From Pseudomonadota bacterium (lineage in GTDB: Bacteria; Bdellovibrionota_C; UBA2361; OMIW01): 8,128 nt of DNA. Location: positions 1 to 8,128 of the forward strand of contig OMIW01000052.1 of NCBI GenBank assembly GCA_900299205.1, given 5' to 3'. The notes under the pieces are model-generated. The model searched no databases. It saw only the letters and a list, made by a program, of their open reading frames with translations, and was not told the origin of the DNA. Shown in pieces: positions 2,009 through 7,653 of this stretch; within the stretch, counting starts at the first letter, position 1, and the number at the start of each line of letters is the position of its first letter. Both the position numbers and the translations under genes were made by a program.

Positions 2009-2036
2009 CGGCTGCGAATACGCTAACGAGCAGCCG
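2009..2036 (-). terminator. Weak stem-loop over the stop codon of the 91-residue gene
   Basis: CGGCTGC at 2009-2015 and GCAGCCG at 2030-2036 are perfect 7-bp complements around a 14-base loop that contains the TAG stop (2023-2025) of the minus-strand gene. The sequence after the stem on the minus strand is mixed (TTCATTCAAAAG) and has no clean U-tract. It might attenuate or end transcription before the dsbD-like gene, but it could be chance. Confidence 0.25.
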
Positions 2037-2298
2037 CTGAGAGTCTCACGAGCTCACCCAACTTATCGAGTTCGCGCTCAAGAGATGCAAGAGTAAGCCG
2101 ATCTTCCGAGGAACAGCCACTTCCCTGCCATGTCCTCCAAATCATCGCCTGATATTTTTCAAGGGTTATCTCGAACGATTGTCGAATTGTCGAACTAGCC
2201 CCCTCCTGTTCCAGAAGGGCACGCCAGTCATTGAGCCGTTTTTGCTTCCGGGAGAGGGCTTGACGGCTAGTTGGTGGAAGGTAAGAAGTACTACTCAT
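2023..2298 (-). CDS. Hypothetical 91-residue protein, charged and probably helical
   Basis: I do not recognise this protein. It starts at ATG 2298 and ends at TAG 2023-2025. It has no signal peptide or membrane segment, so it is probably cytoplasmic. Residues about 12-55 are rich in Arg, Lys, Gln and Glu (SRKQKRLNDWRALLEQEG, then FEITLEKYQAMIWRTW). The tail LASLERELDKLGELVRL has a heptad-like leucine pattern, suggesting two or three helices and possibly a short coiled coil. The region before the ATG offers only a weak SD match. The gene lies 120 bases upstream of the dsbD-like gene on the same strand and is divergent from coaD. Support is the open frame, plausible composition and position between real genes. 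A spurious open frame is the main alternative. Confidence 0.5.
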   Translation of the reverse strand: MSSTSYLPPTSRQALSRKQKRLNDWRALLEQEGASSTIRQSFEITLEKYQAMIWRTWQGSGCSSEDRLTLASLERELDKLGELVRLSAAAR

Positions 2299-2998: not shown

Positions 2999-3413
2999 GT
3001 TTGGGATACGAGCAGCCAGCGCCCGCGGAGCTTTGAGGGTTTGTAGTCTCTGAACGCTCGCTGTTCTTTAGTCTCGCAATTCTCAAAGCGTGCGATGCCT
3101 CCCGTCGACGTCGCATCTCAAGATGTTGGACCTCTTTTCGGGAAGATTTATCCTTTACTTCGTCAATCGGCTTGAACCCTCTCGTGGTGTTCTACCCAGT
3201 TTTGAGGTGCACCTTTCCGATAGGCCTTTATCGAGCGCTCCTCTTACCTTTGATAAATTACAGGCTCGTGGAAATCTGGATTAAGTGAGTCAATCTATCG
3301 AAGAGACATTGGGGTGACAAATCGAGGCACCCCAATTGAAAGGAGGCATCGGAGATATTCATCGCCATCAATAGCCGGCGATCCTATCCAGAGCCTATTT
3401 TCAGCCCGAAGCG
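2999..3413. other. Intergenic region without a convincing gene
   Basis: About 415 bases lie between the convergent ends of coaD and the acidic-protein gene. Short open frames exist on both strands, for example plus 3090-3284, but none has a good ribosome-binding site or recognisable product. I see no tRNA. The one clear element is the stem-loop at 3308-3336. Confidence 0.6.
3308..3336. terminator. Stem-loop between convergent coaD and acidic-protein genes, possible terminator
   Basis: ATTGGGGTG (3308-3316) and CACCCCAAT (3328-3336) form a perfect 9-bp stem around an 11-base loop. It lies about 78 bases past the acidic-protein stop on the minus strand and about 310 bases past coaD. Neither flank has a U-tract, so classic intrinsic termination is unproven. 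Its location between convergent genes suits a terminator or a 3'-end-stabilising hairpin. Confidence 0.38.
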
Positions 3414-3824
3414 CTAGTCCTCTTCGTCGTCGTCCTCAAAATCTTCCTCGTAGTCCTCATCTTCATCGTCGAAGTCGAGGTCCTCATCATCCTCGTCTTC
3501 ATCTTCGTCCTCGTCATCCTCGTCTTCTTCCTCCTCCTCACTCCCCTCGAAGATGTCGGGATCAATCTCCTCCAGTGCTTCGGTGACAGAGGAGATCATC
3601 GCTGCAAAGTCTTCGACGGCAAAATCGTCTGACTCAATCACGGATTCAATCGCTGATCGCACCTCGGTGATAATGCCGGCCTCTATATCAGAGGCCCTCT
3701 CTTCCTCTTCATCTTCATCGGACTCTTCGCCAAGATCCTCTTCAATTTGCTCCTGGAGTTCGGCGAAGCCCTCAAGAAGTTGAGAAAGTGCTTCGGTGAT
3801 CTTTTCTGTGGCTTTGGTGCTCAT
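3414..3824 (-). CDS. Extremely acidic protein of unknown function (136 residues, 51% Asp+Glu)
   Basis: I do not recognise a family. By direct count 69 of 136 residues are Asp or Glu against only four Lys/Arg, giving a net charge near -65. Residues 1-30 (with KITEALSQLLEGFAELQEQI) look like an amphipathic helix. A first acidic patch covers about 28-45. Residues 46-90 return to normal composition with helical character (SAIESVIES, FAAMISSVTEALEEI). Residues 96-136 are an almost pure Asp/Glu tail, 37 of 41 positions. There is no signal peptide or membrane segment. Such tails occur in nucleic-acid mimics, histone-like binding partners and the Firmicutes RNA polymerase delta subunit, but no homology to those is seen. 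The ATG at 3824 has only a weak SD. The frame is credible because the structured middle segment is not low complexity. The upstream region may contain a regulatory leader. Confidence 0.75.
   Translation of the reverse strand: MSTKATEKITEALSQLLEGFAELQEQIEEDLGEESDEDEEEERASDIEAGIITEVRSAIESVIESDDFAVEDFAAMISSVTEALEEIDPDIFEGSEEEEEDEDDEDEDEDEDDEDLDFDDEDEDYEEDFEDDDEED
3417..3539 (-). repeat. Low-complexity GAN-codon tract encoding the acidic tail
   Basis: The tract is a run of GAA, GAG, GAT and GAC codons on the minus strand (imperfect TCN triplets on the plus strand). It encodes residues 96-136 of the acidic protein. The triplet register is irregular, so it is not a clean microsatellite, but it could change length by slippage in steps of three. 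Confidence 0.7.
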
Positions 3825-3928
3825 AGTATCTGCTTTTACAAACGTCTCTGCCTTAATAAACGAACTGCCTCTTCAGGGCCCTCTCTTCAGAGTATTCAAC
3901 TCCTCTTACTATCGGTGGTGCGTCGAGC

Positions 3929-4034
3929 GGTTTTTCAGATCAAAACCAAGAGGTTGCCCTCCGAATCCTTTATCCTTCTCTTCCACCTTTACGCTCTTCG
4001 CGTATCCCACCGCCTCGAGGACGGCTCGGCAACC
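3929..4034 (-). ncRNA. Candidate structured leader or small RNA upstream of the acidic-protein gene
   Basis: Read on the minus strand, GGTTGCC (4034-4028) is complementary to GGCAACC (3958-3952). This would close a loop containing two hairpins. One is CCGTCC/GGCGG with one bulge and a TCGA loop (4024-4010). The other is TACGC/GCGTA with a 5-base loop (4004-3990). A further 6-bp hairpin, GGTTTT/AAAACC with a 7-base loop, follows at 3947-3929. The closing stem starts about where transcription from the upstream -10 motif would begin. It matches no riboswitch, tRNA, 6S, SRP or tmRNA signature I know. The stems are individually short, and the stretch is also open in one frame (3909-4055), so this is a tentative call. 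Confidence 0.27.
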
Positions 4035-4039
4035 CACGG

Positions 4040-4048
4040 AGTATACCA
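4040..4048 (-). promoter_or_regulatory. Candidate extended -10 promoter reading toward the acidic-protein gene
   Basis: The minus strand reads TGG then TATACT: a TGn extension directly before a five-of-six match to TATAAT (4045-4040). No good -35 box lies 17 bases upstream, which is acceptable for extended -10 promoters. The predicted start near 4033 would give a leader of about 210 nucleotides before ATG 3824. Confidence 0.4.
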
Positions 4049-4217
4049 CAAGAGATTTTGTGATGCACCACCGAGACAGATCGCTACAATACACAAAACT
4101 GACCGAAGTAACGATGTTATCTCCTTGCACTTCGTCTCTCGTTGATTGTTCAATACCGACACAGAGAGAGTGGTAAAACGGGGATGACGTCGGTTCGCAA
4201 CAGGAGAGGGGAGAAGG

Positions 4218-4910
4218 ATGAGTTATCAAACAATGGAAGGGTCTGCTGGGGAGATGCCGTATCAAAGCTCAAAGGAACCCAACTTTTTGAAAAGGCTCCG
4301 CAGATGGGGAATTGAAGGCGATTTGCCTTCGTTACTCATCGTGGGGGTTGTAGCAGTGGCATCCGTACTGCTCAGTGGTTGTACATCGACGGGAGTGAAC
4401 ACAACGCACCTGGGGGGGCTTCGTTCAGTTGTCCTTGATGAGACGGGTCTTCTTTCAATTAACACGGTTGCCGTGGCACCTGTTGTAAGTGCTGGCGATG
4501 ATGGCGCCTTGAGCGAGGCTGAGCTCACTCAGGAGGTGGTAGATGCCATGCGGGGGGAGTGGGGAAGTGAGGTCATACCCGCTTCATCGGGGTCAGGAGA
4601 TGGTGTTTTTGCGGTCAGGGTCCGACATTTAACCTCCCTGAGGGGGTCTGCATTCGGGGCCATGCAGCCTGCCGAGGTTGAGTGCGAAATGACTCTTCGA
4701 AATATGCAGACTCACCGGGTTGTTTGGCAGGGGAGTTACGTCTTTAACGACAGACCACTCAGCGATAACTTGTTGCAGCTGAAGAAGCGACAAGAAGGGG
4801 GAGGCTCTGGGTGGAAAAGTGCACATGCCCTTCTGCGGTCGGCGTTTCGCGCTGCCGCACGAGAGGTCGCTGCTCAACGAGAGCGATTGTTCCTCCGCCG
4901 TGAGGAGTAG
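4218..4910 (+). CDS. Predicted outer-membrane lipoprotein of unknown function
   Basis: The 230-residue product has a basic stretch (KRLRRW, 25-30), a hydrophobic core (about 37-51) and the lipobox LLSGC with the lipidated cysteine at C55, followed by Thr. Under the E. coli Lol rule the absence of Asp at +2 predicts the outer membrane. After the cysteine come INTVAVAPV (about 81-89), a region resembling CsgG/LpoB-like lipoproteins in pattern only, then RGSAFGAMQPAEVECEMTLR and VVWQGSYVFNDRPLSDNLL. A pattern of PA-x-V, VW and PLS(D/E)NL followed by a Gly-rich GxW segment is, from memory, shared with unnamed deltaproteobacterial lipoproteins. ATG 4218 follows GGAGAGGGGAGAAGG, an excellent SD. 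The resulting 54-residue signal region is unusually long, so a later start such as TTG at codon 24 is possible. ftsK lies 205 bases downstream on the same strand. Confidence 0.82.
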   Translation: MSYQTMEGSAGEMPYQSSKEPNFLKRLRRWGIEGDLPSLLIVGVVAVASVLLSGCTSTGVNTTHLGGLRSVVLDETGLLSINTVAVAPVVSAGDDGALSEAELTQEVVDAMRGEWGSEVIPASSGSGDGVFAVRVRHLTSLRGSAFGAMQPAEVECEMTLRNMQTHRVVWQGSYVFNDRPLSDNLLQLKKRQEGGGSGWKSAHALLRSAFRAAAREVAAQRERLFLRREE

Positions 4911-5115: not shown

Positions 5116-7653
5116 TTGACCATGCAGCGAAAGAATGGTGCAGCAAGGATCGCCCCAGCGCGGCGCACGACTCAACGTCCGCGTTCGGCACGGGTGGAGG
5201 GAATAAAGCGAATCTCAGCTAAAAAGCGGGAGGTGACGGTGTCTCAGCGTCGGGTGTGGCGCGGGACTGCTACTCTTCTGCTTGGAGGATCCTGTCTCCT
5301 CGCGGCCATTATCAGCAGTGAGTTGATATACAGCGATCTACCGTGGCTTAGAATGGGACATCTGTTCGGGCCCAGTGGCGTTGCAATCGGGGGATCGATG
5401 CTTCGCTGGTTTGGGTTTGGTGCATTCATTTTACCGGTATGTTTTTGGTCGTTCGGAACCCGAACCCATCGAAAAAGTTGCTCAGAACTTACGTCTGCTC
5501 CTCCACCAATAACATGGCGTTCTGTCGCGGTATCCGTGTCGGGGTGCATGTTCTCGGGATCGCTTCTCCTCGGACTCTTTGCGGGAGCAAGAGGAGGAGG
5601 TGTGGTTGGTATCACCCTGGCTGAACATATCGCGGGTCTCATCGGTCCCGGAGGTGCGTTTCTCGCGGCAAGCTCCCTCCTCTTTGTTTTTGTTCCACTG
5701 ATCACGGGACGCACGATGATTGCCTCTTCAAAGATGGCAGTCACTCGGGTGGGGACAGGAGCTCGGCATATTTTTGTTACCATGCCCCAGGCGCTCGTGT
5801 TTTCACCTGTCCGCCAGATATCTCGATTCGGAGTTGCAGCTTCGAGGTATATCGTTCAGTTGGGACACCGCCTTTTTTTTCGTTCTCCCGAACCTATTAT
5901 CCTCAAGACCGTCATTGAGCAGGGTCGGCCAATCGCAAGCTCGCCAAAGCGACGATTGCTGAGAGAGGTAGTTGCTCCTTGCGACGAAACGTCTCGAACG
6001 ACACCGGATGATCGTATTATTCCGATCGCGGTATTGCCCCCAGAGTCCGCACGGCGGATACCCCTCAAGGACAGGGTTCTCGATAATTATGTATTTCCGC
6101 AAGCGAAACTTCTTGCAGAGAGTGATCGGCAGCACGAAGGTGAAGATGGTCAGGAACTACAGCTCCGAGCGAAGCGAATCGAGGAAAAATTAGCTGATTT
6201 TAATATCAAGGGTCGTATTGTTCAATACCAGCGAGGCCCGGTGGTTTCGCTCTTTGAATTTGAGCCGGCACCGGGTGTCAAGCTCGGTCGGATTGTTTCT
6301 CTGCAGGACGATCTGGCGATGAGTCTCCGAGCCTCAGTGGTGAGGATAGTTGCTCCGATTCCCGGTAAAGGCACTGTGGGTATTGAGGTACCGAATCCGC
6401 GCCGGGATGTCGTCAGATTGCGGGAGTTGCTCGAATCCGAGGAGTCTCAGGGCCATCAGTCGCGACTAGCGATACCTCTCGGAAAGGATATCTCTGGTTT
6501 GCCCGTTGTCGTGGATATCGCGACGATGCCCCATCTTCTGATTGCTGGCGCGACGGGTACCGGAAAGAGTGTGTGCCTTAACGCGATTCTGGTTAGTTTG
6601 CTCTATCGGGCTACGCCTCAGGAGCTTGGTCTGATTATGATCGACCCAAAGGTGCTCGAACTCTCTGTATACGACGGAATACCTCATCTGAGGGTGCCCG
6701 TGGTCACGGTGCCAAAGCAGGCGAAAGCGGTGCTCGAGTGGGCAGCCAAGGAGATGGACCGGCGATATCGATTAATGCAGCGGTTTGGTGTCCGAAATAT
6801 AGATAGTTTTAATCGGATCGCGAGAGGGGAGATTGACCCGGAGGAGCTCGGGGAAAATGTGTCGGAGGCTCACCATTCAATCCTGGATCCCTCGGATGTC
6901 GATGCTAGTCGCGATGGGTTGAACGGGAGTGAAGATGCGCCGACCATTCCGGGCGAAGTTGTGCAACCCCTTCCGAAGATCGTTATTGTCGTGGATGAGC
7001 TTGCCGACCTTATGTTGCAGGTGGGACGAGATATTGAGGAGCTCATAACGAGGCTCGCTCAGAAGGCGAGGGCTGCGGGCATTCATCTCATTTTGGCGAC
7101 CCAACGGCCATCCGTCGATGTGATTACCGGACTGATTAAGGCAAATTTCCCGGCAAGATTATCGTTTCGGGTAACGAGTCGGATTGATTCCCGCACGATT
7201 CTCGATTCGATGGGAGCCGAGCGTCTCCTTGGTAAGGGAGATATGCTCTTCATGGCACCGGGAGCCAATCCGCTTCGTCGTATTCACGGAGCATTTGTAA
7301 CCGATGCGGAAGTAAATCGAGTCGTGAACGCGATAAAGTCAAAAGAGGGTCCACGGTACGACGAATCGATCGTCGCATTCTGTGATGCGGCGCTCCGAGA
7401 GGATGGTAGTGAAGGTGAAGAGGGAGGTGAAGGGGAAGGGGAGTACGACCCATTGTATGATAAAGCGGTGGAGCTCGTAATCGACAAACAACACGCCTCA
7501 ACATCTCTCGTGCAGAGGGTTTTTCGGATCGGGTACAACCGGGCTGCACGGATAATCGAGCGCATGGAGCGGGATGGTATTGTGAGCCAGATGGATGGGG
7601 CGCGGCCTCGTGAGGTGCTTGTGCATCATAGGCCCGGAGAGGGTGTTAATTGA
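5116..7653 (+). CDS. ftsK: DNA translocase FtsK/SpoIIIE family
   Basis: FtsK is a septum-anchored, ATP-driven DNA pump that clears and aligns chromosome ends during division. The 845-residue product has a basic cytosolic N-terminus (1-50) and four to five membrane segments (about 51-70, 88-112, 134-156, 161-197). A cytosolic linker runs to about 345, followed by the alpha and beta motor domains. Walker A is GATGTGKS at 478-485 and Walker B is VIVVDELADL with D627 and E628. The highly conserved ATQRPSVDVITGLIKANFPARLSF and LDSMGAERLLGKGDMLF motifs follow. An acidic, Gly-rich hinge (about 760-776) joins the C-terminal winged-helix gamma domain (about 776-840), which reads DNA polarity sequences. 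The linker is short compared with E. coli FtsK (1329 residues) and typical of the smaller SpoIIIE-size group. TTG 5116 suits AAAGGA at 5103-5108, 7 bases upstream; ATG 5122, two codons on, is the alternative start. Confidence 0.97.
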   Translation: MTMQRKNGAARIAPARRTTQRPRSARVEGIKRISAKKREVTVSQRRVWRGTATLLLGGSCLLAAIISSELIYSDLPWLRMGHLFGPSGVAIGGSMLRWFGFGAFILPVCFWSFGTRTHRKSCSELTSAPPPITWRSVAVSVSGCMFSGSLLLGLFAGARGGGVVGITLAEHIAGLIGPGGAFLAASSLLFVFVPLITGRTMIASSKMAVTRVGTGARHIFVTMPQALVFSPVRQISRFGVAASRYIVQLGHRLFFRSPEPIILKTVIEQGRPIASSPKRRLLREVVAPCDETSRTTPDDRIIPIAVLPPESARRIPLKDRVLDNYVFPQAKLLAESDRQHEGEDGQELQLRAKRIEEKLADFNIKGRIVQYQRGPVVSLFEFEPAPGVKLGRIVSLQDDLAMSLRASVVRIVAPIPGKGTVGIEVPNPRRDVVRLRELLESEESQGHQSRLAIPLGKDISGLPVVVDIATMPHLLIAGATGTGKSVCLNAILVSLLYRATPQELGLIMIDPKVLELSVYDGIPHLRVPVVTVPKQAKAVLEWAAKEMDRRYRLMQRFGVRNIDSFNRIARGEIDPEELGENVSEAHHSILDPSDVDASRDGLNGSEDAPTIPGEVVQPLPKIVIVVDELADLMLQVGRDIEELITRLAQKARAAGIHLILATQRPSVDVITGLIKANFPARLSFRVTSRIDSRTILDSMGAERLLGKGDMLFMAPGANPLRRIHGAFVTDAEVNRVVNAIKSKEGPRYDESIVAFCDAALREDGSEGEEGGEGEGEYDPLYDKAVELVIDKQHASTSLVQRVFRIGYNRAARIIERMERDGIVSQMDGARPREVLVHHRPGEGVN

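What the first reader, a model, noticed from the sequence alone, without database searches (positions are those of the whole stretch)
3414..3824. Hyperacidic protein with a split architecture
Half of all residues are Asp/Glu, and the last 41 are 90 percent acidic. They follow a normal-looking amphipathic middle domain rather than being one long low-complexity run. This resembles DNA mimics, chaperones for basic proteins, or calcium binders, but no known family is recognisable. Having its own 393-base upstream region suggests a regulated gene.
Basis: partly seen in the sequence, partly recalled or inferred. Interest (0 to 1): 0.6.

Follow-up and report, generated by a model that had tools for sequence, protein, structure and literature searches.

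The report
Conserved acidic-tailed protein beside FtsK
This is a real, previously undescribed small bacterial protein: a compact three-helix head carrying a long, almost purely negatively charged tail, found in essentially every member of one poorly known bacterial lineage and nowhere else we looked, and nearly always encoded back-to-back with the gene for FtsK, the chromosome-pumping motor of cell division.

Summary
ORF 3414-3824(-) encodes 136 residues, 50.7% Asp/Glu, with the last 41 residues 90% acidic. It is a real gene. Homologues occur in 37 of 45 held genomes of the same phylum and in none of 337 sampled genomes outside it. In six of the eight negatives the contig ends at FtsK before the expected position; in the other two FtsK itself was not found.

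Residues 1-92 form a conserved domain, predicted as three helices (pLDDT 90), with no Pfam, NCBIfam, PDB-sequence or fold match. The tail (23-81 aa, 50-86% acidic) varies in length but keeps its composition: tyrosine is 20% of its non-acidic residues, and Lys and Asn are rare.

The gene is divergent from FtsK, usually with an LpoB-like lipoprotein gene (and sometimes uppP) between, in 30 of 32 testable loci across two orders; other neighbours change. The '393-base upstream region' is this shared spacer.

Best mechanism (inferred): a specific head docks on a partner, plausibly FtsK or something FtsK works with, and delivers a disordered polyanion that competes with nucleic acid, as RNA polymerase delta does. 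Membership in the delta family was tested and not met. The partner is unproven.

The parts
3414..3824 (-). acidic-tail gene, 136 aa, single copy in its genome
3549..3824 (-). residues 1-92: conserved folded domain, predicted helices 3-31, 37-66, 70-87, ending in the motif ALEEIDPxxF (P89 invariant in 28 sequences; D88 and F92 nearly so)
3690..3731 (-). residues 32-45: acidic linker between helices 1 and 2, variable in length across the family
3417..3548 (-). residues 93-136: acidic tail (86% Asp/Glu) with scattered aromatic residues, presumably disordered (not modelled)
3825..4217 (.). divergent spacer shared by the acidic gene and the lipoprotein gene
4218..4910 (+). conserved neighbour: uncharacterised lipoprotein family with an invariant Cys and a weak LpoB similarity in some members
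5116..7653 (+). FtsK DNA translocase (4TM, alpha, motor and gamma domains); the most constant genetic neighbour

Best explanation
A conserved cytoplasmic protein of one bacterial phylum. SHOWN: a real single-copy gene; a conserved N-terminal domain of about 80-105 residues predicted as three helices; an acidic C-terminal tail always present, with variable length but constrained composition (acidic plus tyrosine, few Lys or Asn); near-universal presence in the phylum; divergent linkage to FtsK. INFERRED: the helical head docks on one specific partner and holds the disordered polyanionic tail next to a basic, nucleic-acid-binding surface, where the tail competes with DNA or shields the surface, and the aromatic residues act as anchors inside the acidic run. 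It would thus work like a tethered polyanion (as RNA polymerase delta does with RNA polymerase, or acidic histone chaperones with histones). The best guess for the partner, from gene order alone, is FtsK or a protein that works with it at the division septum.
For: Homologues in 37 of 45 phylum genomes and none in 337 others. Tails kept in every homologue read, 23-81 aa and 50-86% acidic, with or without the inner linker. Tyr is 20% of non-acidic tail residues against 7% expected from one-step changes of Asp/Glu codons (a crude neutral model), while Asn (2% against 13%) and Lys (6% against 13%) are rare, so composition and not only a repeat is kept. Folded domain with confident model. Divergent to FtsK in 30 of 32 loci where the contig reaches far enough, while the genes on the other side change between orders (M16 peptidase pair in one, aspS and others in the second; G033). 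In loci L042, L048, L054 and L055 no lipoprotein gene lies between, yet FtsK is still there, so FtsK is the constant partner. Delta subunit precedent: folded NTD 1-90 plus disordered acidic CTR of net -47 that displaces nucleic acids (PMC7749165); aromatic anchors in the acidic domain of APLF are needed for histone binding (PMC9328677).
Against: No binding, expression or localisation data. Divergent gene order can reflect a shared regulatory region and not physical contact. In G037 the acidic gene and FtsK are on different contigs and unlinked, and in G035 FtsK lies downstream in the same direction. The basic N-terminal stretch of FtsK that could be a target is missing in f14 (L054, L055), which still have the acidic protein. 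Acidic tails also serve solubility or ion binding.
Confidence: 0.4

Rival explanations
1. General chaperone or anti-aggregation factor for small basic proteins such as HU/IHF or ribosomal proteins, with no special tie to FtsK.
For: Architecture like acidic chaperones; HU/IHF-type proteins are present in 44 of 45 phylum genomes, often 2-6 copies.
Against: HU/IHF are near-universal in bacteria, whereas this protein is restricted to one phylum; the link to FtsK would be unexplained.
Confidence: 0.2
2. Regulator of transcription acting on RNA polymerase, a functional stand-in for the Firmicutes delta subunit.
For: Same size and layout: folded N-terminal domain of about 90 residues and a disordered acidic tail (for delta; here).
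Against: No HARE-HTH (delta) match in any of 28 members; the head is all-helical; no linkage to RNA polymerase genes in the loci read.
Confidence: 0.15
3. Specific DNA mimic in which the folded head, not the tail, imitates DNA (as phage DNA mimics do), the tail only adding charge.
For: Conserved acidic positions in the head (E60, E64, D67, E82 acidic in 96-100% of sequences).
Against: No fold or sequence match to viral or PDB proteins; no phage or viral copy found; chromosomal core gene.
Confidence: 0.12
4. Divalent-cation buffer or solubility/osmotic protein.
For: Very high negative charge.
Against: Only marginal chance matches to cation-binding families; retention of tyrosine and a conserved specific head are not needed for this.
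Confidence: 0.08

Closest known systems
RNA polymerase delta subunit (RpoE, Firmicutes)
   Same: Folded N-terminal domain of about 90 residues followed by a disordered, strongly acidic C-terminal region (net -47 in B. subtilis; PMC7749165).
   Different: No HARE-HTH match; the head here is three helices with an acidic insert between helices 1 and 2; different phylum; linked to FtsK, not to RNA polymerase genes.
Acidic histone chaperones (nucleoplasmin tails, APLF acidic domain)
   Same: Acidic disordered stretch with aromatic residues; in APLF the aromatic anchors are essential for histone binding (PMC9328677).
   Different: Eukaryotic; different folded domains; histone-fold proteins were found only as two weak partial matches in 45 genomes of this phylum, so histones are not the general client.
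Phage and bacterial DNA-mimic proteins (for example SPO1 Gp44, PMC8208478)
   Same: Small, highly acidic, proposed to occupy DNA-binding surfaces.
   Different: No sequence or fold match; conserved chromosomal gene; charge concentrated in a variable tail.
LpoB (PF13036), for the neighbouring lipoprotein only
   Same: Lipoprotein with weak profile similarity in 3 of 14 members (best E 4.6e-4).
   Different: Below Pfam's cut-off in the one member shown (18.8 against 22.3 bits); fold not obtained.

Membership tests
RNA polymerase delta subunit | N-terminal HARE-HTH domain | tested here: not met
   No such Pfam or NCBIfam match among the 28 homologues scanned at E <= 1; predicted head is three helices without strands
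RNA polymerase delta subunit | disordered acidic C-terminal region | tested here: met
   Acidic tail in every homologue; disorder itself presumed, not measured
RNA polymerase delta subunit | binds RNA polymerase and displaces nucleic acid | not testable with these tools
   needs biochemistry
Histone/HU chaperone | a basic DNA-packaging client is present wherever the protein is | tested here: inconclusive
   Histone-fold in 2 of 45 genomes, weak and partial; HU/IHF in 44 of 45, but these are general in bacteria
DNA-mimic protein | folded domain related to a known mimic | tested here: inconclusive
   No match in PDB or viral fold libraries or PDB sequences; absence of a listed match does not exclude it
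DNA-mimic protein | binds the DNA site of a DNA-binding protein | not testable with these tools
   needs biochemistry
any described Pfam/NCBIfam/PHROG family | profile score above the family's cut-off | tested here: not met
   Window protein and domain: no match above a curated cut-off in Pfam or NCBIfam; nothing convincing in PHROGs

The most novel reading that the evidence does not exclude
A phylum-specific accessory factor of FtsK: a helical head that recognises FtsK (or the septal complex) and a tyrosine-bearing polyanionic tail that gates FtsK's contact with DNA, controlling when the chromosome is pumped.
Probability: 0.15. Interest if true: 0.8.

Novelty: new variant of a known kind. Interest (0 to 1): 0.48.

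Why it matters
It is an undescribed protein family that is close to universal in one bacterial phylum and absent elsewhere in our sample, so it is a marker and probably a core function of that lineage. The unusually stable pairing with FtsK gives a concrete, testable idea for a tail-based regulator of chromosome translocation or septal assembly, and it adds a bacterial case of the 'folded anchor plus polyanionic tail' design known from RNA polymerase delta and histone chaperones.

Tried and rejected
Spurious-frame idea: rejected by conservation and dN/dS. Bacterial-histone chaperone: only 2 of 45 genomes show a weak partial histone-fold match. Phage or mobile origin: no viral-contig relative. 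Defence system: the one PADLOC hit (ZorA, E 0.0013, helical stretch of a MotA-like protein) looks like a coiled-coil coincidence, and there is no Zorya gene set beside it. RNA element in the spacer: no Rfam match and ordinary folding energy. Sigma-70 promoter scan: no more sites than chance. Foldseek and VIA-align 2 against PDB and viral models: nothing above background for helical bundles. Basic N-terminus of FtsK as the target of the tail: common but missing in L054/L055, and FtsK/SpoIIIE N-termini are often basic in other bacteria (own knowledge), so not counted as evidence. A structure job for the neighbouring lipoprotein had not finished when the report was written (last poll). The GTDB name of the phylum was not established.

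Full report
Observation. The ORF at 3414-3824 on the minus strand is exactly as described: 136 residues, 69 acidic (50.7%), last 41 residues 90.2% acidic, 4 basic residues, computed charge near -65. The window is a whole contig (8128 bases, C52) of a 2.45 Mb metagenome-type assembly in 206 contigs, 89.75% complete.

It is a gene. A protein search of relatives gave 36 further genomes with full-length or near full-length homologues (one additional marginal hit, G056 at E 0.006, is outside the class and was not confirmed by the profile search). With a profile of the N-terminal domain alone (28 sequences, tail removed), 37 of 45 held genomes of the phylum match at E 1e-22 to 1e-34, each once, and none of the 337 genomes outside the phylum matches. 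That scan uses two short peptide patterns, so it cannot exclude distant relatives.

The eight negatives. FtsK was looked for in them. In G013, G018, G019, G020, G041 and G042 the contig ends within or shortly upstream of FtsK, before the place where the acidic gene would lie (contig lengths; no domain found in the remaining upstream sequence). In G022 and G044 FtsK itself was not found. No genome shows a true absence.

Anatomy. The alignment shows a conserved first helix (about residues 5-31), a linker that is long and acidic in the window's own order but almost missing in the more distant families, then two helices and the boundary motif ALEEIDPxxF, with P89 invariant and L84, D88 and F92 nearly so. 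AlphaFold2 on the 28-sequence alignment gives three helices, 3-31, 37-66 and 70-87, mean pLDDT 89.9, pTM 0.73. The open arrangement with long amphipathic helices suggests an oligomer, which I could not test. Acidic positions 60, 64, 67 and 82 are acidic in 96-100% of sequences. No Pfam or NCBIfam match above cut-off, no convincing PHROG, no PDB sequence relative below E 0.016, no fold match (best Foldseek E 3.7 in PDB and 1.8 in viral models; best VIA Z 5.7, within the range for unrelated helical chains).

The tail. It is present in every homologue, 23-81 residues, 50-86% acidic. Its sequence is not alignable, but its composition is held: of 367 non-acidic tail residues in 32 homologues, 20% are Tyr, while one-step neutral changes of Asp/Glu codons would give about 7% Tyr, 13% Asn, 13% Lys and 27% Gly; observed Asn is 2%, Lys 6%, Gly 9%. 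The null is crude (equal codons, transition weight 2) and the homologues are related, so this is suggestive, not a test with a p-value. Two homologues end in a basic patch after the acidic run (L047, L050).

Selection. Between the closest homologues the domain has pN 0.03-0.25 against pS 0.64-0.90; most pairs are saturated at synonymous sites, and the unsaturated ones give dN/dS 0.06-0.14.

Surroundings. In 36 loci read at length plus G033, five end too close to the gene to judge (L033, L041, L049, L051, L064). Of the 32 others, 30 have FtsK on the upstream side in divergent orientation. Of these, 26 were detected by the automatic test; L035, L047 and L063 by the clustering, where FtsK is truncated or the acidic gene was not picked by the greedy gene caller; and G033 by coordinates. 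In L061 FtsK is downstream and in the same direction; in L057 (G037) it lies on another contig. Between the two usually sits a lipoprotein gene (the window's 4218-4910; invariant Cys, weak LpoB similarity in 3 of 14 members) and in some families also uppP (BacA). In L042, L048, L054 and L055 there is no lipoprotein gene between, and FtsK remains. Genes on the other side change: an M16 peptidase pair with YihY in much of the window's order, aspS or others in the second, coaD in the window. So the acidic gene and FtsK form the most stable pair here.

Mechanism. What is shown ends with architecture, constraint and gene order. I infer a head that recognises one partner and a tail that acts as a tethered polyanion with aromatic anchors. 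The direct precedent for the layout is RNA polymerase delta, whose NTD anchors an acidic CTR that displaces nucleic acids (PMC7749165). The precedent for aromatic anchors is APLF (PMC9328677). From gene order, FtsK or its septal partners are the first candidates. I put the general tethered-polyanion mechanism at 0.4 and a direct role on FtsK at about 0.15.

Membership. The delta family is excluded by the head. A histone chaperone in the strict sense is unlikely since histone-fold proteins are not general in the phylum; an HU/IHF client stays possible. Family novelty rests on the libraries used; a hypothetical-protein cluster may well exist in public databases without a name.

Noticed in passing
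window 4218-4910 (+) and relatives (alignment A3): Uncharacterised lipoprotein family conserved across the phylum between the acidic gene and FtsK; invariant Cys55, Gly143, Trp170 and Arg221 in 14 sequences; weak similarity to LpoB. A structure job did not finish in time.
   Followed up: partly
L047 8181-8654 and L050 7893-8459: Two homologues of the acidic protein end in a basic patch (RPSRGRRKRR; KPKKGKGKAKKAASGSRKKR) after the acidic run.
   Followed up: no
L041 3424-3726, L038 11006-11299: Small Cys-rich protein family of about 100 aa (CxxC pairs, CxNCxHYD-like motif) near the locus in the window's order; no confident Pfam or NCBIfam match.
   Followed up: no
window 2023-2298 (-): 91-aa ORF between the DsbD-like gene and coaD without a family match above cut-off.
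   Followed up: no
window 2999-3413: About 415 bases downstream of the acidic gene without a convincing gene, where relatives carry the M16 peptidase pair; no tRNA or Rfam match.
   Followed up: partly
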